Of a DNA stretch of 64,000 nt, positions 17,163 to 56,199 are shown piece by piece. Origin of the DNA: Salminus brasiliensis (Eukaryota; Chordata; Actinopteri; Characiformes; Bryconidae); contig NC_132888.1 of the NCBI RefSeq assembly GCF_030463535.1, positions 1,997,470 to 2,061,469 of the forward strand, read 5' to 3'. The stretch's first letter is position 1. Each line of letters opens with the position of its first letter. Both the position numbers and the translations under genes were made by a program. The notes below the pieces were generated by a model that saw only the letters and a program-made list of their open reading frames with translations, made no database searches and was not told the DNA's origin.

Positions 17163-20100
17163 GATTATTTAGTTGTTATTGTTATTTATGCAATGCAGTC
17201 AGTTTAAGCAGTTACTAACGTTATTATTACTAATGTTTTTTCTAGACCAGTATACCGTTTGCAGTGGTGGGCTCCAACCAGCAGATTGAGGCGAAGGGGA
17301 AGAAGGTGCGAGGACGTTTGTACCCCTGGGGCGTGGTGGAGGTAGAAAACCCCGAACACAATGACTTCCTGAAGCTCCGCACAATGCTCATGTGAGTCTC
17401 GCAGCACTCAGCATTCAGAGTCCACAGGGTCCAAACATCTACATAGTGGTTCTGTAAGCAGAAATCAGTACAATGAACAATATAATAGTATTGAAGTCCC
17501 ACAGCTTATTTTATTTGGTCCTAAAAAGATATCAATGCATAATTAACTACATAATTAATCACATCTACATTCAATTTGCATTTGAGCTGATTTAGCTAAT
17601 TGTAAATAGATAGCTTTGAGTCTGCATTATTTCCACTGTGTTTCATACATTCATAGGCATATAAGTTTGTAATCACCAAACTCTGATACGGTAGCACTGT
17701 TTTATTAAAGTGGTCATTCTGCTGTATCACCGTGGGCAGGATCGTTCCCTGTATGAAAGACTCTATTTATTATATGACACAAATCAATGCTAATGTTTAT
17801 CATTTATACCATAATTCACCCTGATCATCAAGTTCAGAATTCTGAATATGAGCCCTTTGGGTTTGACTGTCTTTGACTGCCTGGTGTTTGTGCAGCACCC
17901 ACATGCAGGATCTACAGGAGGTGACCCAGGACCTGCACTACGAGAACTTCCGCTCTGAGCGCCTCAAACGTGGCGGCAGGTTGTCCTCCCATGGTTACAT
18001 TCTGCCTCTGTCGCCTGCGTACGTACTGCACTGCCTGTCTTTCTACACCTCCCCCACCCTACCAGTACTCAAAACCCAGAAATTAGCCCAATTAATAATT
18101 ATATACAAAAGTCCCAAAACTGTCAGACAGCTCCACAATGGACAGATTAGTCTGTCTAGAAAGGATCTTGTATATACATAATTAAATTCACCAGATTTAT
18201 ACTTAATAATAATAATAATAATAATAAATACATAATAAATAAGCAAATGCACAGTTCTCCTGGAAAAATGAACTGTATAAGCTACACCTTAACAACCCTA
18301 TATTGTACCTTGGAGGGTACATATAGTACAGTGCCTTTCTGTCTGACAGCTGTTGTCTCAAGTTGCCAACCAATGTACATAATATAAATTATGTGATTAG
18401 GGCATAAAACAAAGTATTATATTTTAAGAGCATATATTTGGAGGAAAACAGATGCAGGAGAACATAAATCCAGTAAAAACAAGAGCTTCTCATTCTGAAG
18501 AAAGAAAGTAGTGAGATCTTGTTGGTGAGCTAGTCTGAAGAACAGAGCTCGGTTCCTCCAGGGTTCTCCTGGACGCCCCCCAGTCCAGCCAGCACAGTGT
18601 GGAGGATGTGTTCAACTCCATCAGCAGCAGCAGCAGCAGCAGCTCACCTGATTTACCATCATTAAGCCCTGATTTACCACCAAACCAGGTGTTGATCTGA
18701 GGAGAACTCTAAATAACACTAGACTCCATGAGAGAGGAGAACTTTGGAGATGTTCTAATGAACACAGTGATGGAGAACCTCCACCACCTTCTGTAGGAGT
18801 GTTATTATTAGTGTTTATTATAATATTTAATGATTTACTGAGCAGATTAGGAGTCCTGTAGTATCTAAACACAGCAAATCTCTGCATCATAAATCTGTGT
18901 GTTACAGATCTCATCTATAGACAGTGGATCTGTGAGCTGTAGCTCTGCACACACCAAATCTGTATACTTCAAAGGATAGGAGGGGGAGGTACTGCTGGGA
19001 GCTCAGTCAAAGCTCTGTCTGTCTATCACCCTGATGCTTATACTGATTCAACACACACACACACACACTCTTACACCCAAGCAAACCCCACACTGGCTCG
19101 CTTGCTAACACGCACGCCTCTCTGCCTCATGCACTGTGCTTCAACACACTCTACTCTGCTCTACCCACCTTCCACACCGCTCTGCACACACACTCGCTGC
19201 TCCGCTCTGTGTGTGCCGCTTCTGCCCTGAGCCCTTTTCACCAGGGTCCTGATCACCAGGCCTCATCTCACACTCACCTCTCTGGGTACTCGCTTCAGCT
19301 TCACGTCAACATGCTGAGTATATATGATTTAGCTGATCTGCAATTAAGATTTTATGCAAGTAAGATTTTCACTGTTGGATTTTAGATTTAACCCTTTAAA
19401 GCCTGAACCATCAAATAATTGCTGGGTATTTCTTTAAAACCATAGTGTTGATTTGACCTGCTGACCAAGTAATAAATAAATAATAATAATGATAATATTG
19501 ATGATAACCAACAATCATATGTATTATTAATATTATTAATAAATACATTTTATTTATTATTAATTATTACTTTGAATACAAAGTTAGGTAACACTTTGCA
19601 TACAGGACCTTTATTTTGTAACGTGCATCTTATTGCTCTGAGCATTTTAAAAAAAAAAAAAACTAAATATTATTCAGAATTCTTTACCCCCTTATACTTT
19701 ATGCTACTTTTTTCAAATATTCCATTTTAAAAAATTAATTAATAATTAAAATTTATTTCAATCTTTTTTTTTTTTATCTGGAGCATGCAGCACATGGATA
19801 ATCCACCAGGGGGCAGAAAACATGCCTTAGATTTTTTTATTATTATTTAATTCTTATTTCTATAATGTTAATTTATTTAATTAGTATTATTATTGCTAGG
19901 TACACTGAACAGCCATAACATTAGTACCACCGACAGGTAAAGTAAACAGCTGAATAGTTGATGATCTGGTTACAGTGGCTCCTGTAGGGCATATAAGGCA
20001 GTAAATGAACAGTCAGTTGTTGAAGCAGGAAAAATAGACAAGCGTAAGAATCTGAGACACTTTGACAAGAACCAAACTGTGATGTTCTAGATAAACGACT

Positions 20101-21993
20101 GGGTCAGAACATCTCCACCAGAACATCAGGCAGGTCTTGTAGGCTGTTCACAGTATGCAGTGATCAGCACCTACCAAAACTGGTCCAAGAAAGGACAACC
20201 AGTGAACCAGTGACGAGCGACAAGGTCATGGCCACCCAAGGCTCTTACTGATGCTTATGGAGGTCCCACCTCCCAACTTCCAGGACTTAAAGGATCTGCT
20301 GCTGATATATTGGTGGTCTTGGGGAGGTCATGCCTTCAATGTGTGTTGTGGTGGCACAAGGGGGACCTACTCAATATTAGGCAGGTGGTGCTAATGTTCT
20401 GGCTGATGGTGTTATTTGATATATATGAAATATGATACACGTGGCTTTAAAGGGTTAAAGCGATAGTTCAGCCAAAAACCAAACTGGTTCCAAATGCAGT
20501 CGATCAGCCAGGAGCTCGGAGGCTAAAGTAGTTAGCTGGTAATGGGAGCTTATATCCCATCATATAGCTTATCTTACCCAGCACACACTCTCCTCAGACC
20601 TCTGACCCCTATGGGGGTCTTCAGTGGTTTCTAATGGAGTTGATTATGAGGTTTCTCACGCTGTATGACCCACAGTACCCATAAGTACATCCTCTGCAGA
20701 AACACACTCAGTACACACTGTTTATTTACTGGATTTAATATGTTGGGAAAAACATACAGAAATATAATGTGTAGAGAAAGTATGGGACATTTTATATTTT
20801 ATTTTATCATATTTTGTATTTATTCTTTTAAAAGATTAAAGGATCTTTTAAAGCTTATTTACACTCGTACACATCTGTATTACAAAAATGGCTCTTTATA
20901 GATACATATGGCATCGCTCAAAAAACTCTTTCTAGCATCCTTATGATTAAAAGCATATAATTGATTTTCTAAATTCTGAATCTTCTACAGACACACATCA
21001 CATTTTAATGCATAATTGCTGATTATTGACTGTATTTAACTAAAAAAAACAAACAGGAAAACGCAAACAATAAGATGTGCACAGAGATTTTGGTACTTTT
21101 TTGTGTATCGTGTGTTAGAGCCGGCCGATATGACAATATTATATTGTATCATGATAAATTTGGTTATGGTGATAACAGTAATCTTTTCTAATCATATGGA
21201 GGAGACTGTTATTACTGCTTAATAAACATCCACTGATCAGCTGCAGGTTTCATTACTAACAGTGTAATTAGACTGAAGGGTTCGTTAGATGAAGAGCAGC
21301 AGATGTTATAGAGTATAAATCACTGTATTCAGTACAGGAGAGGATCTGAACATTAGTTTATAATAGTAGTCTGTGATTACATGTGATGTATCATGATAAA
21401 TATTATGTATCGCATAGTTTTACCTGTATATCGCCCAGCCCTATTGTGTATTCTTTATGTTAAATTCTGTAAATTAATAGAAATTGTCTAAATTTGCTCA
21501 GTACTTTCCAACAGTATCATAAACAGTAAGCAGTAGTATATTTTACAGTATTTGAGACGAGCTTCACACAGTAATAATTGGTGGGAAAACAGCCAGACCG
21601 CCATAATAAAGCCTCAGTTATGTGACTTTGTGATTGCAGTGGGTCATACAGTGTCAGAAACCACATAATCAATCTATTAGAGATTAACGAGCACCTCCAC
21701 ATGGCTTGCGGTGAGTGTGTGCTGACCTTAGGAATACCGTTAGCGCTGTGCTAATTGGTGGGATTAGATTCCATTACTTGTTAGCTGTATTAGCCTCAAA
21801 CACCAAACATGACTTGGCTGACTGTCGTTAAAGTAGTAAACCTAAGTGTGTGTTGAGCATTAGGCTCCTCACACAGTGTGTACTTGTCTGTTCGTGTGTG
21901 TAATTCTGTGGGTCCTGTAGGAAGGGTCCAGAGCCGGAGGAAATGGACAAGGACATGATCCTGCAGGAGAAGGAGGCTGAGGTTCGCTACACT

Positions 21994-33564: not shown

Positions 33565-42953
<9,389 letters not shown>

Positions 42954-44770: not shown

Positions 44771-45084
44771 TTTCAAACTAGTCACAATACAGGCCAGCCA
44801 ATCAGGACTCATTTACAAGGCTCATTTACATATACCTTGTCGTAAAGGCACAGAAACTGAACCAGCCTGTTTAATTTAAAGGGATAAAATAGAGAGTGGT
44901 TGAACTGTGTAGTAATGTCTGCTGCATAAACACAAAGAAACACCAAAATGGGACAGATGGGCCCTTTAAGGTGTTCTGTAACAGTGAACCGCTAATAAGG
45001 ATTAATGTCTTCCTAACAGGGCAGGTTAAACATAGACAGGCCAGCGTAATCCCACAGCAAAGCATAGTACAGGGTCGGTAGTGC

Positions 45085-46640
45085 CACCATCACATTTACA
45101 GTACACTCCTGACCCACCATCACATCTACAATACACTCCTGACTGACCCACCATCACATCTACAGCACACTCCTGACTGACCCACCATCACATCTACAGT
45201 ACGCTCCTGACCCACCATCACATCTACAGCACACTCCTGACTGACCCACCATCACATCTACAGTACGCTCCTGACCCACCATCACATCTACAGTACACTC
45301 CTGACCCACCATCACATCTACAGTACACTCCTGACTGACCCACCATCACATCTACAGTACACTCCTGACTGATCCACCATCACATCTACAGCACACTCCT
45401 GACTGACCCACCATCACATCTACAGTACGCTCCTGACCCACCATCACATCTACAGTACACTCCTGACCCACCATCACATCTACAGTACACTCCTGACTGA
45501 CCCACCATCACATCTACAGTACACTCCTGACTGATCCACCATCACATCTACAGCACACTCCTGACTGACCCACCATCACATCTACAGTACGCTCCTGACC
45601 CACCATCACATCTACAGTACACTCCTGACCCACCATCACATCTACAATACACTCCTGACTGACCCACCATCACATCTACAGCACACTCCTGACTGACCCA
45701 CCATCACATCTACAGTACGCTCCTGACCCACCATCACATCTACAGTACACTCCTGACCCACCATCACATCTACAGTACACTCCTGACTGACCCACCATCA
45801 CATCTACAGTACACTCCTGACTGACCCACCATCACATCTACAGTACACTCCTGACCCATCACATCTACAGTACACTCCTGACTGACCCACCATCACATCT
45901 ACAGTACTCTCCTGACCCACCATCACATCTACAGTACACTCCTGACTGACCCACCATCACATCTACAGTACACTCCTGACCCACCATCACATCTACAGTA
46001 CACTCCTGACTGACCCACCATCACATCTACAGTACACTCCTGACTGACCCACCATCACATCTACAGTACACTCCTGACCCACCATCACATCTACAGTACA
46101 CTCCTGACTGACCCACCATCACATCTACAGTACACTCCTGACTGACCCATCATCACATCTACAGTACACTCCTGACTGACCCACCATCACATCTACAGTA
46201 CACTCCTGACTGACCCACCATCACATCTACAGTACACTCCTGACTGATCCACCATCACATCTACAGTACACTCCTGACCCTCCATCACATCTACAGTACA
46301 CTCCTGACTGACCCACCATCACATCTACAGTACACTCCTACTGACCCACCATCACATCTACAGTACACTCCTGACTGACCCACCATCACATCTACAGTAC
46401 ACTCCTGACTGACCCACCATCACATCTACAGTACACTCCTGACTGATCCACCATCACATCTACAGTACACTCCTGACTGATCCACCATCACATCTACAGT
46501 ACACTCCTGACCCTCCATCACATCTACAGTACACTCCTGACTGACCCACCATCACATCTACAGTACACTCCTGACTGACCCACCATCACATCTACAGTAC
46601 ACTCCTGACCCACCATCACATCTACAGTACACTCCTGATC
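45085..46640. repeat. 30/34-bp minisatellite, about 48 copies
   Basis: The unit is 'caccatcacatctacagtac' plus 'actcctgaccc' (30 bases) or the same with an extra 'actg' (34 bases). The two lengths alternate in patterns that themselves repeat, for instance near 45190-45420 and 45420-45590. It lies between stk25 and bok. Confidence 0.95.
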
Positions 46641-47059
46641 CACCTGTGTCTAAAACATCAGCTGCTGGATCTTAGCCACAGCAACAGTGTGCAAAACGTG
46701 AAACTACCTCCACCATGTTTGGAGGCTGTACTTTAGCCTGGCTGGCTCTCACTGGGGGTTGTTGATCTGCTTTAAAACGGTGCTCGATTACGCCACCAAG
46801 AGGTGATTCAAATAAAATAGTGTGAAGAGTGAATTTAGTCAAATCAAAAGATGCTGGTACTGCACATCTAGAGAAATGATGTCCGAACGCTAGCTGCTAT
46901 GGGGACTGGATGAGAGGGACATTGTACGTAACTCCAGGTCACGGTAAGAGCTCGTCACACAGAGCTGGGAGCTCAGCTGCACTCCCTGAAGGGTTTTGAA
47001 GTAGGTTTAGTCTATATTTGGTCTAAATCCCTTTCATTGACGCTGGTAAGTGAATTATA

Positions 47060-49197: not shown

Positions 49198-52100
49198 ATG
49201 GATTTGATGGACCGAGCCCCCAGTGAGAAAGAGTTGGTCTTCCAGTCTAAGATACTTTGTAGAGACTTCATCTACTCCAGGATCATCAGAGAAGGTCTCA
49301 ACTGGTCCAAAGTTGAAGCTGCCCTGCCCGTTCCAGTTCCAGATGGGGCTCTCGGGGATGTCTCAGTGGTGCTTCTCAAGCTGGGTAAGGAATCCACATG
49401 CCCTGGTGGAGCTGTGGTTTGTTTCATACAAAGTGTTTTGCAGTGTAAGATGGGTTTGGACCACAGCTTCACCTGGAATCTGGCCTGACAATACTGATAC
49501 CAGTTTTTAAATAATTATCAACCAAAACAGATCTGATATTTCTTCCCTTTAAACTTCTAAACTTCAAAATGAGCAAAAAGCCCTTCACTTAAAAGGAGTA
49601 TCTAATGGTAGGCTATTAAACTCTCACAGTTAATGTCACCGGAGTGTGTGCTGTTTTAGGATCTGTTACAGGATCAGATTAGATTTATTGATTTTGTATT
49701 CCAATATCCCATTCAGTGTGTTCTGATATATTCCGAGAGGACTTGGATGATTAGAGTACTATGGTCACCTTATTGTCTTGTGTTTAGTAATGTCTAAGCT
49801 TGGAGGTATCCTTTGATTTATTGGTCTATTCTAACTAGCTGAGGTTCTTCTTGGGTAAATAGCAAAGCACTTTGTAAGTCGCTCTGGAGAAGAGCGTCTG
49901 CTAAATGCCATAAATGTAAATATTGGTCCAATACTCATCCATATACTCATTCATCAGTATTTGTCAATACAATCCATATTCATCCATACCCATCTATACC
50001 CCATAGTGCCCATCCATACCCATCTATACCCCACAGTGCCCATCCATATTCACCCATCTATACCCCACAGTGCCCATCCATATTCACCCATCTATACCCC
50101 ACAGTGCCCATCCATATTCACCCATCTATACCCCACAGTGCCCATCCATATTCACCCATCTATACCCCACAGTGCCCATCCATATTCACCCATCTATACC
50201 CCACAGTGCCCATCCATATTCACCCATCTATACCCCACAGTGCCCATCCATATTCACCCATCTATACCCCACAGTGCCCATCCATATTCACCCATCTATA
50301 CCCCACAGTGCCCATCCATATTCACCCATCTATACCCCACAGTGCCCATCCATATTCATCCATACCCCACAGTGCCCATCCATATTCATCCATACCCCAC
50401 AGTGCCCATCCATACCCACCTAAAAGGGGCAGTGGTGGCTCAGTGGTTAGAGAGCCGGGGTATCGAGCTCGGCAAGCTGCCACTGTTGGGCCCTTGAGCA
50501 AGGCCCTTTACCCTCTCTGCTCCCTGGGCGCTGGAGTTGGCTGCCCACCACTCTGGGTGTGTGTGTACTCACTGCTCCTAGTTCACTAGTGTGTGTGTTC
50601 ACTACCACAGATGGGTTAAATGCGGAGGACACATTTCACGGTGTCCTCCGTGTAGAGTGTACACTGTACAGTGACAAATACGTGCACCTTTACCCCACAG
50701 TGCCCAGCCATATTCATCCGTACCCACCTATATCCCACACTGCATGATACTGTAAAAAGCTGACATTGAGAGATAAAAAAAAACATGGATTTTTAGCATG
50801 ATGTTGCCATTAATACATGATGATATAAAAAGATATACAGCATTTTGACACTGCACAACATTGCACATGTGGAAAGTGTGATAGCCCTAATCTGTACCCA
50901 TCAGTATCCATCCATACCAATACACCACCATTTCTATCAATCCATATCCATCCGTACCCATTAATATCTATCCAGATCCATCAGTGCTCATCTATACCTT
51001 TCCATACCCATTAATACCCATTGGTATCAATCCATACCCTCCCATACTCATTAGTACCCATCCTTACCCATCAGTATTTATTAATACTCAAATATTTCAA
51101 ACCCCTGATTTAGGTGCTTTTGGTCAGAGTCATTCTTTGCTGGGCTGCTGATTTCCAACAAAGCAAAAGCAAGTCTGAATTTAACTGAGGGCACAAGAAT
51201 GAAGACCTTCGCCTGTTCCTAAGAGACCTGAATCAGCCTAAATCTTCTAAAGCGTGTCTCAGTGGCCGCCTGCTGTGTTTTACAGGTGATGAACTGGAGT
51301 ACATGCGGCCGTACATCTACCGGAACGTTGCGAGGCAGCTCAGCATATCCGTGTCTGTGGAGAGCGTGGTGTCTGACGCTTTCCTCTCTGTGGCCACAGA
51401 GATCTTATCGCTGGGTGAGTCTCTGAGAACAGTGTTCTCACAAGACCCGTCTGAGTTGGGGGGCCTTCAGGCCTGTTTCAGCATTTCAGACAGAAAGACA
51501 CTTCATTTCCTATCCAAACCCACCAGTGCAGCTCCACCAGTCTTCTGAGGTTTATATGGAATGATGATGATGATGATGATGATGATGAGGGTAAAATAGT
51601 GAATAGAGAATCTCCACTAATCCAGTTCTCTTTAGGGACTACTTTCTGTATCCGCACTACACCCTGCAGCATGTATCCCTCCACCATTTTAATGATCTGG
51701 TTCTAAAAGCAGGTTCTAGAGCCGAACTCTTCTTAGAACTCTGGTAGAACAGTGTCTCAGGCATCAGGCAGCGTCTTCATCACCATTAGGTGAAGAACTC
51801 TCTGTGAGGAGCTTTTATTATTAGAGCTTCAGACGTCTGCTTCCCTTCACCTCTACTGTAGAACTCCAGCTCTGACTGGGGGAGGTTATCTAGAACCCAG
51901 CGTTTCACACCAAACCCAATTATACAGACATTTAGAAATCTTGCTGATCTTTCCCAGTAGAAAAGCCTGAAAGCTGGTGTAATGATGCCAGAACTGGTTT
52001 AATAAAATGATGTTAGAAGGACTGTGAGGTGACCGCCCTGATCACTTCTATGGTCACTGTCAGGACATCCCACCCACATCCACTCCAGCCCACTGTAGTT

Positions 52101-54135
52101 GGGGGAATTGGTGGGTATTCACTGTGCTCTGGTAGTTGCCTTTAGTTATTTGGGTTTAACTGGCAGCTCAGGGAGGCTTCTGCTGTTAAAGTCATCATTG
52201 CTTATGATGGCCCAATGTCCAAGTCACGTTCCACCATATACATCACTTCCCGGACGTATGTACTTCACATTTTTCCAACATGCCTTTAAAAATGCCAAAT
52301 AAGGCCATGCCCAGGCTCCTCTCCTGGCACAGACTGCACTGTAATTCTTTATTTTTTTCTTTATTTTTTTCTTTCTCCTCTTGGCTCCTCGACCAGGACT
52401 AAAAGGTCCTTTCCCTAAGTGATGTACTCTTCTCACAACCCCGTAACCTTTCTATTTCGTCCAGTCGTCCTCCATTCCAGGACACGGCCGGGTGATTCTA
52501 GTGCAAGATTGACTTAATCAAGACACAGGATCAATATCCATACACTGTCTGTCCAAATATTTGTGGACACCCCTTCTAATGAATGCATTCAGCTACTTTA
52601 GGCTGCACCCATTGCTGACACAGATGTGAAAATGCGCGCACACACACACACACAGCTTGTCTAGTCCCTGTAGAGAAGAAGTACTGCAATAGAATAGGGC
52701 TCTCTGGAACAGCATGACCCTATGGGCACCATGTTGCCTAATAATGCCAGGTGTGGGCTATAGAGGGGTATAAAGCCCCCCAGCAGCATTGAGCTGTGCA
52801 GCAGTGGAAGAGTTGTGTTCTCTGGAATGATGAGGAGGGGTGGTGCTTATTGTCATCATCCAACATCCTGATCGTACAGACACTCCTAATTCCCTTGATT
52901 TCAGAAGAAACAATGAATGAGCAGGTGTCCAAATACATTTGTCCATATAGTGTAAAGTCACGAAGTGCTGGGACTGGATGGTATCAGGGCTCTGCTGCCA
53001 GACTCCTCAGGGGAAATTGGCTTGGAGAGCTGGCAGCTGAGAAGCGGCTAATATCTTTAGCCTCCAGGTTACGTCAGATCAGGCTCCTGATTGGTCCGTT
53101 AAATTGGACCTCTGGAAAACGAGGCTGCACCTTTGCATGTAGACGTCCAGTCTGCAGATCGAGCCTCGCAGCAGGATTCCTGAAGGGTTCTTGGCTCATA
53201 GCTCCATAGACAATGAGACATAGCTCATGTCTCATTCTTTCTTCAGGAACATCTTAGGGTGGAATGTTTATGAATGTGTATAATATTTATTTAATAATTA
53301 TAAAGTGACCAAAAGGTTATTTATACACTACATGGACAAAAGTATTGGGACACCTGCTTATTCATGGTTTCTTCTGAAATCAAGGGTATTAAAACGTTTC
53401 TCCTGCTTCTGTTGGAGTGACTGTAATCTCTACTGTCCAGGGAAGAAGACTTTCTACTAGAGCTTGGAGCAGAGCATTGCTGTGAGGATTTGGTTGCATT
53501 CAGCGACCAGAGCATTAGTGAGGTCAGGATGTTAATCACCACCCCAACTCCACTGCTCCACAGCTCCTCAATGCTGGGGGGCTTTATACCCCTCTAGCCC
53601 ACACCTGGCATTATTAGGAAGCATGGAGCCGATAGGGTCATGATCTTTACTATCTGCTCCAGAGAGAAGCTGAAAGCATTCTTTAGAAGGGGTGTCCACA
53701 AACATTGGACACTGGAGCCCAGTGTTTACATTTAATTCTCCTCGCTCCCTCAGGGATCACATGGGGGAAGGTGGTGGCCATCTTTGCAGTCGCTGGGGGT
53801 CTGGCAGTGGACTGTGTCCGACAGGGTTACCCAGCCATGATACACACCATAGTGGACAGCCTGGGGGAATTTGTCCGAAAGAGTCTAGTTCCCTGGCTCA
53901 AGAGGAGAGGAGGATGGGTAAGAAACTGAACTTCTAACACAGCTACTCTCAGTTCTGCAAATCCTCTAATGGCAATAAAACCCACTGACCCGTACTCCTC
54001 CTACTGTTCCTCCAGGGGGACATATCCAAGTGTGTGACGAGCGTGGACAGTACAGTCCAATCCCATTGGCTATCTACGGTTGTATCAACCTGGAGGCACG
54101 TTGTGAAGACGATGTACATCTACCTGATGAAGTAA
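49198..54135 (+). CDS. bok: Bcl-2-related ovarian killer (BOK)
   Basis: A multidomain pro-apoptotic Bcl-2 family protein that can permeabilise the mitochondrial outer membrane and localises largely to ER/Golgi membranes. Coding exons are 49198-49384 (exon border 49166), 51286-51414, 53754-53917 and 54016-54135. The sum is 600 nt, 199 aa; human BOK is 212. The BH3 region is VVLLKLGDELEYMRP (57-71), BH1 is ITWGKVVAIFAVAGGLAVDC (107-126), BH2 is around WLKRRGGWGDISK (153-165), and the C-terminal tail is about 178-199. The family start MEVLRRSS is not seen: the aligned residues ENLRSL lie just upstream without an ATG. I chose the ATG at 49198 because a good acceptor (ctgcag) at 49160-49165 cuts off the alternative ATG at 49129. 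The tail is basic and only weakly hydrophobic. Which fish paralogue this is remains unknown. Confidence 0.95.
49868..49922 (+). mobile_element. Solo 3' tail of SINE family 1
   Basis: 'gtaagtcgctctggagaaga' plus 'gcgtctgctaaatgccataa' matches the 3' end of 61011-61243. The tRNA-like head is missing. Confidence 0.7.
49955..50425. repeat. 34-bp minisatellite, about 12 copies, bok intron
   Basis: The unit 'cccatctataccccacagtg' plus 'cccatccatattca' is near-perfect, with shortened copies at the right end. Stop-free frames across it encode IHPSIPHSAHPYS-type repeats. The array is interrupted by a SINE, after which array-like text resumes at 50689-50745. Confidence 0.95.
50427..50690 (+). mobile_element. 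SINE family 2 inserted in the minisatellite
   Basis: Begins 'ggcagtggtggctcagtggt' (A-box-like), continues 'gctgccactgttgggccctt' and 'gggttaaatgcggaggacac', and ends 'acgtgcacctttacc'. The B-box segment is deleted in this copy. Minisatellite text borders it on both sides. Confidence 0.8.
51500..51925 (+). repeat. Dispersed repeat R2, second long copy
   Basis: Near-identical to 40970-41505 over 'ttagggactactttctgta', 'aaaagcaggttctagagccg' and 'gcatcaggcagcgtcttcat', but with only one 'ccagctctgactggg' unit where the other has three. It lies in the bok intron about 85 bases after the exon ending at 51414. Confidence 0.8.
51926..52547. other. bok intron, nothing recognised
   Basis: Ordinary intronic sequence with a TTTATTTTTTTC tract near 52350. 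No exon signals. Confidence 0.4.
52548..52953 (+). mobile_element. MITE A in bok intron
   Basis: Starts 'ctgtccaaatatttgtggac' and ends 'gtccaaatacatttgtccat' then 'atagtg'. Both termini are present. Confidence 0.8.
53322..53708 (-). mobile_element. MITE A, reverse copy in bok intron
   Basis: The left end is 'tacactacatggacaaaagt' and the right end 'gaaggggtgtccacaaacat'. It ends about 45 bases before the bok exon at 53754. Confidence 0.8.
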
Positions 54136-54799
54136 CTGTGGACGTATTTGGACGGCTTTGACTGCTCATGAAGAAATAGCTCCCCCCAGTGGATCTGAAG
54201 CACACCGGTCTTCACTCTGGACTATAGAGCTGGTCAATGGATTTTGAAACCACTGATGGTTCATTGAACTGTTGATGCAACCGATTTGGCTTAGAGCCAT
54301 TGTGCTCACAGGTTCCAGGACTGGAGATTGCACTCCAGGTTTGGAGGTGAGGACCTCTGCTGGGAGTTGCATAAACACTTTGTAGAAGATAAGCATGTAC
54401 TGCAAGGCTCACAGCGGTCTGGGGGATCTGGGGTGGTGCTGAGCAGGAGGACATGTGCAATATCAGGTTTATGGACTGAAAGACACCCAGATTCATGAAG
54501 CACTTCTAAGCAGAAAGCCTGGATCTACATCAGCTCTGATGTTCTGATCACCAGGTGGAAACATGAACATACAGGTGCTCTCAGACCAAGCCCTGCTTCT
54601 TTAGCTTTTATTTATTTTTATATCTATATTTTAACTCATTTTAATACACGATACTGCTGTTTGATGTGTTGGCCTACTAACATAACTGATTTTATACTGC
54701 ATGCTTTTGAGTGATGTGTTTTAACTAATTAGATTTTTATATTTACTAATTCACTTTTATTTTTTGGCTGAAGTGGCAAATTAAGTCACAATGCACTTT

Positions 54800-54856
<57 letters not shown>

Positions 54857-54920
54857 CAAACTGTTCCCATTTGCTGCTTTATGCATGGCAAAAATAAAGA
54901 TTTTTATCTTTAATGATAAA
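54136..54920 (+). other. bok: bok 3'UTR with AATAAA signal
   Basis: Non-coding sequence after the bok stop. It includes a (GT)n run at 54804-54855 and a poly(A) signal AATAAA at 54893-54898 (a second lies upstream of no other gene). The first 213 bases are duplicated at 55319-55530. Confidence 0.7.
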
Positions 54921-55117
54921 GGTGCATATTCATTGATGCAGAGGAATTCAACGATGGGGAAGAAGAGAATTTCATAGATATTCTGAGGTTTATTAATCCT
55001 AAAATGCATTAGAATTAACATTAAATCACACAGAACACAATTGTACACCAATCAGCCATAACATTAGCACTCCTGACCGGTGCAGTATGGAAAACAAGGG
55101 GCGGATCTTCATATTAG

Positions 55118-55318
55118 GTGGCGAGTGAACGTAAGAGACACTTTGACGAGAACCCCTGTGAGGTTCTAGATAAACGACTGGGTCAGAACATCAGGCAGGT
55201 CTTATGGTCCAAGTGTGTGACAAGCGTGGACAGTACAGTCCAATCCCATTGGCTATCTATGGTTGTATCAACCTGGAGGCACGTTGTGAAGACGATGTAC
55301 ATCTACCTGATGAAGTAA
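55118..55318 (+). CDS. Chimeric transposon-bok open frame (hypothetical)
   Basis: A 66-codon open frame. Residues 1-30 come from the transposon's decayed transposase N-terminus (containing RLGQNIRQVL), and residues 31-66 are in frame with the bok terminal exon from SKCVTS to the final YLMK and its own stop. The product would be a small peptide with the bok tail segment, which in BOK is the membrane-associated C-terminus. There is no visible promoter, and whether it is transcribed is unknown; readthrough past the bok poly(A) site is the simplest possible source. Coding status is unproven. Confidence 0.25.
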   Translation: MASERKRHFDENPCEVLDKRLGQNIRQVLWSKCVTSVDSTVQSHWLSMVVSTWRHVVKTMYIYLMK

Positions 55319-55530
55319 CTGTGGACGTATTTGGACGGCTTTGACTGCTCATGAAGAAATGGCTCCCCCCAGTGGATCTGAAGCACACCGGTCTTCACTT
55401 TGGACTATAGAGCTGGTCAATGGATTTTGAAACCACCGATGGTTCATTGAACTGTTGATGCAACTGATTGGCTCAGAGCCATTGTGATCACAGGTTCCAG
55501 AACTGGAGATTGCACTCCAGGTTTGGAGGT
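55208..55530 (+). pseudogene. Captured duplicate of bok terminal exon and 3'UTR
   Basis: Aligns to 54025-54348 with nine substitutions and one deleted base over 324 positions (about 97% identity). It begins nine bases inside the last coding exon and stops 213 bases into the 3'UTR. Coding differences are one silent and one Thr-to-Met change. It lacks the BH1-BH3 exons and the 5' splice site, so it cannot make BOK. Confidence 0.93.
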
Positions 55531-55805
55531 CTTGTGGGGTGGGGTCTCCCGGTCTGCAGTGGTCAGTTCCTACCAGAAGGACAACCTATGAACCGGACTC
55601 ATGTCTTATTGACTCTCATGGAGGCCCCGTCCACCTCACAACCTACAGAACTGGAAGGATCTGCTGCTGCTAACGTAAGTCTTGGTGCTCCAGACACCAC
55701 AGCAGGACACCTTCAGAGGTCTTGCAAAGTCTGCATGTCTGGACAAGTCAGAGCTGTTTTGGTGGCATAATAGGCAGGTGCTGCTAATGTTATGGCTGAT
55801 AAGTG

Positions 55806-56199
55806 TTATATCCTGAAGTCAACACAGATAATGTTCAGCATCACCACATATACAGTAGTACCAAACACACCACTTAATAAATACACCTGATATACAAACT
55901 AAGCTTCACTTGAGTCTTTCTGAAGGTCAGTTTCTCCTCTCAGCTTTTATTTGGACAGGAGAACCTGAAAGTAACACAGAATTTAAACCAATATTAGTAA
56001 TAGTAGAATAACTCCAGTGTAAACCCCATTCTTTCCAATGACTGAACCCTGGATTCTCATATAAGCTTATTAATGCACTGATATTCAAGCAAGCATCCAG
56101 TGGAAGCAGAGGAGAAGAACATCATTGATTTTGTGGAAAAGTATGCTAGGTTTGAGTATTCTGATTTTAAAACGTCTTATGATTGATTGATTTATTTAT
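55806..56199. other. Intergenic, nothing recognised
   Basis: Sequence between the convergent bok and thap4-like genes. It has a TTTATT (reverse AATAAA) near 55948 but no exon signals. Confidence 0.4.

What the first reader, a model, noticed from the sequence alone, without database searches (positions are those of the whole stretch)
55044..55805. Tc1-like transposon that has captured the neighbouring bok terminal exon
A deleted Tc1-type element matches the sister copy at 19901-20412 on both sides of an insert. The insert is a ~97% identical copy of 54025-54348, the last bok coding exon plus 3'UTR, in the same orientation. A 7-base direct repeat AGGTCTT flanks the insert, and its last four bases coincide with the end of the bok homology, suggesting template switching or microhomology repair. 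Host-gene capture is well described for plant Pack-MULE elements but uncommon for vertebrate Tc1/mariner elements. If the unit remains mobilisable, it could spread a Bcl-2 family exon.
Basis: partly seen in the sequence, partly recalled or inferred. Interest (0 to 1): 0.85.

Follow-up and report, generated by a model that had tools for sequence, protein, structure and literature searches.

The report
Transposon copy containing bok exon fragment
A decayed Tc1-type jumping gene just downstream of the fish bok gene contains a pasted-in copy of the end of bok, most likely left by local DNA repair; this is a known kind of event in animals, and no sign was found that the copy spreads.

Summary
A degenerate, short Tc1-like element (55044-55808) is interrupted by a 323-bp insert (55208-55530), 96.9% identical (9 mismatches, 1 gap) to 54025-54348, the last bok exon and part of its 3'UTR, same orientation. 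Flank alignments to other family copies show one element, not two, and a flanking repeat of 11 nt, AGGTCTT(A/G)TGG, not 7; its AGGT is shared with the right end of the bok tract. A search of the whole 1.07-Gb assembly with the insert found only the insert, the parent and a 40-bp partial match; the element family gave 2,997 loose candidates (40 scored). This fits gap-filling repair of a break inside a resident element, templated by bok about 0.86 kb away, rather than a mobile gene-carrying transposon. Tan et al. 2021 (PMC8277862) describe this class as single-copy, cis-proximal 'Pack-TIRs': 370 in 100 animal genomes, 115 in TcMariner elements, including a worm case with a terminal exon plus 3'UTR. 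The insert starts at nt 10 of the exon, so it lacks the bok splice acceptor. It is a new member of a known kind, of low interest. Outgroup genomes, reads and expression could not be examined.

The parts
53756..53917 (+). bok penultimate coding exon (start approximate), followed by GT at 53918-53919
   Evidence: frame; sequence; Bok by PDB match of the joined exons
54016..54138 (+). bok terminal coding segment (GDISKCV...YLMK stop), preceded by CCTCCAG
54025..54348 (+). donor tract copied into the element (from nt 10 of the exon into the 3'UTR)
   Evidence: BLASTN
54893..54898 (+). AATAAA, likely bok polyadenylation signal (inferred), upstream of the element
55044..55808 (+). degenerate short Tc1-like element with insert; TA at 55044-55045 and 55807-55808
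   Evidence: terminal repeats and TA ends; family hits
55044..55207 (+). left part of the element, ending AGGTCTTATGG
55197..55207 (+). left copy of the 11-nt direct repeat (AGGTCTTATGG)
55208..55530 (+). insert: 96.9% copy of bok 54025-54348
55527..55530 (+). AGGT shared by bok tract end and element (4-nt microhomology)
55527..55537 (+). right copy of the 11-nt direct repeat (AGGTCTTGTGG)
55527..55806 (+). right part of the element; between 55575 and 55576 it lacks 13 nt relative to copies such as L007 and L030
19901..20412 (+). sister element of the same family, uninterrupted at the site

Best explanation
A resident, short (so probably non-autonomous) Tc1-like element lay about 150 bp past the likely bok polyadenylation signal. 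A double-strand break or stalled fork inside the element, staggered over AGGTCTTGTGG, was repaired by copying nearby DNA. The most likely course is that the right-hand end paired with bok through AGGT, copied about 320 nt of the terminal exon and 3'UTR from less than 1 kb away, and was then joined to the left-hand end without homology, leaving the 11-nt overhang sequence on both sides. Shown: the one-element structure, the copy, the 11-nt repeat, the 4-nt microhomology, the absence of further copies in one assembly search, and the cis location. Inferred: the break, the direction of copying, the order of events (element first, capture later) and the repair pathway. The product is a single-copy Pack-TIR with no demonstrated function.
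For: The insert search of the assembly gave 3 first-look candidates, all scored: the insert, the parent and a 40-bp 93% match elsewhere. A search with 53900-54500 gave 2 of 2, parent and insert. Donor and copy are about 860 bp apart on one strand. The element belongs to a repeated family: 2,997 and 2,620 loose first-look candidates, 40 scored in each search. The insertion point is internal, and the two flanks meet on the same 11 nt in 7 of 7 informative loci of 29 examined. The right junction shares AGGT; 4 or more shared bases occur at 1.6% of random junctions. Among the 40 scored family places the closest over part of the right flank are 90% (145 nt), 88% (120 nt) and 86% (184 nt) identical, less than the 97% between insert and parent, which fits capture after element insertion but does not prove it. 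No cis capture was found inside the element of any of the 29 other family loci, so this copy is exceptional within that sample. Published precedent shows the same combination: mostly single copy, 56.9% of 281 within 15 kb of the parent, microhomology at one or more breakpoints in 67.6%, median insert 224 bp, breakpoints skewed to the interior (PMC8277862).
Against: The left junction has no microhomology in the simplest reading. There is an unexplained coincidence there: the copy begins with TCCAAG, and TCCAAG also ends the stretch that the right flank lacks (TCCAAG is present in 12 of the 20 aligned rows, the full 13-mer AAAGTGCTCCAAG in 8 of 20). This could mean extra template switches; 6 of 380 donor 6-mers occur in the local 81-nt string. 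With two junctions, a 4-nt match at one of them is about a 3% event, not overwhelming. No outgroup genome was available to show the uninterrupted element at this locus. RNA templating is not excluded, because the insert lies within one exon. The genome search skips very common words, and the right-junction pattern search did not complete.
Confidence: 0.85

Rival explanations
1. Serial replication-fork template switching: left flank to the element's own TCCAAG further downstream, to bok through a 6-nt TCCAAG microhomology, back to the element through AGGT, then past the 13-nt stretch.
For: TCCAAG is at the start of the bok tract and at the end of the 13 nt missing from the right flank.
Against: Needs several extra jumps. 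The four bases ATGG at the left junction match the element's next bases GTGG with one transition, so no jump is needed: 15 of 19 readable family strings have GTGG there, and two copies dropped from that count, L017 and L025, show an A at the same place. The neighbourhood is shortened in other copies too (L017, L025, L026, L028, L031).
Confidence: 0.1
2. A mobile gene-carrying element: bok was captured during transposition and the unit can spread (Pack-MULE-like or FoSTeST).
For: Terminal repeats and TA ends are still recognisable.
Against: No other copy of the captured fragment found in the assembly. The parent is about 860 bp away, whereas multicopy Pack-TIRs lie far from their parents (PMC8277862). 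The element is only about 445 bp long without the insert, and the closest of 40 scored relatives is 90% identical over 145 nt.
Confidence: 0.02
3. Reverse-transcribed bok mRNA fragment inserted into the element by a LINE-type machinery.
For: An 11-nt direct repeat is in the range of LINE target duplications (recalled); the insert is wholly exonic.
Against: No A-tail, and the copy ends mid-UTR, about 545 bp before AATAAA. Landing 860 bp from the parent by chance in a 1.07-Gb genome is very unlikely. The AGGT microhomology lies at the junction.
Confidence: 0.03
4. Assembly chimera.
For: No reads could be examined.
Against: 10 differences from the parent, no N in the window, homology ends inside the element on both sides with an 11-nt repeat.
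Confidence: 0.01

Closest known systems
Single-copy Pack-TIRs of animals, TcMariner class (Tan et al. 2021, PMC8277862; outline and sections 7, 8, 10, 12, 14 read; supplements not seen)
   Same: Terminal-inverted-repeat element with an internal copy of nearby host DNA; single copy; parent under 5 kb away; microhomology at one breakpoint; internal breakpoint; insert of a few hundred bp.
   Different: Another locus, and an 11-nt direct duplication of element sequence flanks the insert (not discussed in the sections read).
Worm Pack-TIR from F43E2.6 (same paper, section 10)
   Same: Terminal coding exon and part of the 3'UTR copied to a place near a gene about 4 kb away.
   Different: That one is transcribed as an alternative 5'UTR of rpb-4; no expression data here.
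Pack-MULEs of plants (as described in PMC8277862) and Turmoil-1 transduplication in C. elegans (PMC2572040, abstract and outline seen)
   Same: Host gene fragment inside a DNA transposon.
   Different: Many Pack-MULEs are multicopy and Turmoil-1 carries its fragments in the terminal repeats; this one is single copy and internal.

Membership tests
Pack-TIR (criteria of PMC8277862) | Both flanking parts reach at least 10 bp of the element's terminal repeats, same element | tested here: met
Pack-TIR (criteria of PMC8277862) | Internal non-element sequence 100-5,000 bp | tested here: met
   323 bp
Pack-TIR (criteria of PMC8277862) | Parental copy of at least 90% identity, length ratio 80-120%, unique best hit | tested here: met
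   96.9%, 323/324; only the parent besides itself and a 40-bp partial hit; BLASTN-type search instead of their BLAT
Pack-TIR (criteria of PMC8277862) | Parental copy without transposable elements in the flanking 100 bp | tested here: met
   53900-54500 matched only itself and the insert in the genome; the search skips very common words, so this is not absolute
Pack-TIR (criteria of PMC8277862) | Not a retroduplicate | tested here: inconclusive
   Insert lies in one exon, so no intron could be lost; no A-tail
Single-copy gap-filled Pack-TIR | Microhomology at one or both breakpoints, parent in cis | tested here: met
   AGGT at the right junction, about 860 bp
Single-copy gap-filled Pack-TIR | Element without insert at the same place in an outgroup | not testable with these tools
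   The answer says that this genome has no relatives in the collection
Multicopy (mobile) Pack-TIR or Pack-MULE-like | Captured unit present at several sites | tested here: not met
Tc1/mariner element | Terminal inverted repeats with TA target duplication | tested here: met
   one extra base on the right side
Tc1/mariner element | DDE transposase | not tested
   Not searched for; at about 445 bp without the insert the element is too short for a whole transposase. The Tc1-like label rests on the terminal repeats and TA ends and on recall.

The most novel reading that the evidence does not exclude
The copied bok end is transcribed, for example by read-through past the likely bok polyadenylation signal, and gives a bok transcript with a second 3'UTR or tail segment that shares regulatory sites with the parent. 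A difference at 55260 (C in the parent, T in the copy) also makes an ATG in frame with the copied membrane-anchor codons.
Probability: 0.04. Interest if true: 0.4.

Novelty: new member of a known kind. Interest (0 to 1): 0.17.

Why it matters
It is a clean example of DNA repair apparently pasting a host exon into a resident DNA transposon in a vertebrate. The 11-nt duplication and 4-nt microhomology make the likely repair steps readable. It adds one case to a described class and changes no general view.

Tried and rejected
Two independent element insertions flanking a bok tandem duplication: rejected, because the flanks meet on the same 11 nt of the element in 7 of 7 informative loci of 29 and no terminal repeat was found at the insert (14-base motif with up to 3 substitutions).

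A 4-nt untemplated filler ATGG at the left junction: set aside in favour of element sequence AGGTCTT(G to A)TGG after aligning family copies.

TCCAAG microhomology with a serial template switch: kept as a rival only.

Spread of the unit: not seen. The left-junction pattern with up to 2 mismatches had 11 hits, 1 exact at this locus and 10 with 2 mismatches; the control (pattern read backwards) had 12, so the 10 are what chance gives. The right-junction pattern did not complete.

Control for local captures: 8 of 29 family loci (about 3 kb each) had a local direct repeat of 50 bp or more at 80% or more. Only one, in L025, touched the element, and its partner lies in a second element copy there, so 0 of 29 showed a cis capture.

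Rows dropped before counts: of the 29 loci, L010 had no left anchor and L003, L004, L013, L017, L018, L025, L028 and L031 had no right anchor, leaving 20 loci plus the sister (21 strings). L011 and L027 have no AGGTCTT-like site, leaving the 19 strings. L027 was also left out of the 20-row alignment.

The 40-bp match at C10 (L022): TBLASTN of the Bok protein against the whole 3,040-base locus gave no hit at E up to 1; I read 501 bases of it. Its origin stays unexplained.

Literature: four searches. No listed title among the 10 shown of 53 concerned such a bok copy; the library holds open-licence papers only.

Full report
What is there. The window is part of a 1.07-Gb assembly of 103 contigs. 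Four coding segments between about 49.2 and 54.1 kb join to a 199-aa protein whose best PDB match is Bcl-2-related ovarian killer protein, Bok (chain 5wdd_A, E = 1e-71). That the organism is a fish is inferred from the repeat and gene content and comes from no call. The last coding segment begins at 54016 after CCTCCAG and ends with a stop at 54138; an AATAAA lies at 54893. Some 150 bp further, at 55044-55808, is a degenerate Tc1-like element with TA at both outer ends, one extra base on the right. It is interrupted by 55208-55530, a copy of bok 54025-54348 with 9 mismatches and one 1-base gap in 324 columns. Eight of the 9 substitutions are transitions. Two fall in the coding part (ACG against ACA, silent; ACG against ATG, Thr to Met) and 7 plus the gap in the UTR. 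The Jukes-Cantor distance is 0.028 (95% interval of the raw proportion 1.3-5.2%). I give no date, since the species and its rate are unknown.

One element, not two. The left and right parts give four collinear local matches to the sister copy at 19901-20412, and joined they align to it end to end with gaps. In the genome, searches with the whole structure and with the right flank gave 2,997 and 2,620 loose first-look candidates, of which 40 were scored each time. I examined the 29 family loci fetched by those searches. In 7 of them (L007, L013, L014, L016, L018, L019, L030) both flanks align up to the junction. In 7 of 7 the last 11 nt of the left flank and the first 11 nt of the right flank fall on the same 11 nt. 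The other 22 loci did not align up to the junction on both sides under the cut-offs used and say nothing either way. So the element is continuous at that point in its relatives, and here AGGTCTT(A/G)TGG has been duplicated around the insert. Among 19 family strings with a readable site (of 21; L011 and L027 not readable), 15 have GTGG after AGGTCTT, 3 GTAG and 1 GTGT. Two copies outside that count, L017 and L025, carry an A where this left flank does.

Junctions. On the right, the bok tract ends in GGAGGT and the element resumes with AGGTCTTGTGG, so AGGT is shared. Random pairs of positions from the donor and an 81-nt family-like string share 4 or more bases in 1.6% of 200,000 draws. On the left, the element runs through ATGG and bok begins with TCCAAG, with no shared base. 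One observation does not fit neatly. Between 55575 and 55576 the right flank lacks 13 nt relative to copies such as L007 and L030. The stretch is AAAGTGCTCCAAG in 8 of 20 aligned rows, and 12 of 20 contain its last six bases TCCAAG, the same six with which the bok tract begins. This may be a trace of more template switches, or chance: 6 of 380 donor 6-mers occur in the local 81 nt, and the neighbourhood is shortened in other copies such as L017, L025, L026, L028 and L031.

Copy number. A search of the assembly with the insert alone, at E up to 10, gave 3 first-look candidates, all scored: the insert, the parent and a 40-bp 93% match on C10. TBLASTN of Bok against the 3-kb locus around that match found nothing at E up to 1. 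A search with 53900-54500 found the parent and the insert only. So no multiplication of the captured unit is seen in this assembly, with the caveat that the search skips very common words and that the right-junction pattern search did not complete in 6 tries. Among the 40 scored family places, the closest over part of the right flank are 90%, 88% and 86% identical over 145, 120 and 184 nt, more distant than the 97% between insert and parent. That fits an older element and a later capture but does not prove the order. In 0 of the 29 other family loci was a cis-duplicated piece found inside the element.

Mechanism. The simplest account is a break or stalled fork inside the resident element, with staggered ends over AGGTCTTGTGG, filled by synthesis on bok DNA less than 1 kb away after pairing through AGGT, and closed by end joining on the left. 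The structure, the repeat, the microhomology and the cis location are shown, and single copy as far as reaches; the break, the direction and the enzyme are inferred.

Comparison with the literature. Tan et al. 2021 (PMC8277862; outline and sections 7, 8, 10, 12 and 14 read) describe 370 Pack-TIRs in 100 animal genomes, 115 of them in TcMariner elements, and 8 of any superfamily in zebrafish. Only four are multicopy. Of 281 unique ones, 56.9% lie within 15 kb of the parent and 67.6% have microhomology at one or both breakpoints; the median size is 224 bp and 13.4% captured exonic sequence. The authors infer transposition-independent gap filling for most single-copy cases. One worm example carries a terminal coding exon with part of the 3'UTR. 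The present case meets their filters as far as I could test, except that retroduplication cannot be excluded by intron loss. It is a new member of a known kind.

Consequences. The insert begins at nucleotide 10 of the exon, so it has no bok splice acceptor. The frame that enters it from the element (55118-55318, stop to stop) has no ATG before the copied codons. No function is indicated. Expression was not testable here.

Noticed in passing
55118-55318 (+): A 66-aa stop-to-stop frame runs from the element's left part into the copied bok codons without a start codon before them; the T at 55260 (C in the parent) makes an ATG in frame with the last 19 Bok codons.
   Followed up: partly
55575-55576 (+): Here the right flank lacks 13 nt present in copies such as L007 and L030; the missing stretch ends with the same six bases (TCCAAG) with which the bok tract begins.
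   Followed up: partly
L022:1501-1540 (C10:36723573-36723612): A 40-bp, 93% match to the bok 3'UTR elsewhere in the genome, with no Bok coding sequence found in the 3-kb locus; origin unexplained.
   Followed up: partly
45000-46650 and 49900-50430: Repetitive frames on both strands point to long tandem arrays upstream of and within the bok gene (seen, not measured).
   Followed up: no
L004:1-1242 and L005:1-481: Self-matches with a period of about 73 bp, arrays near element copies on C11 and C10.
   Followed up: no
41020-41200 and 51455-51706: A repeat with near-identical frames ([19 protein letters not shown]...) occurs twice in the window.
   Followed up: no
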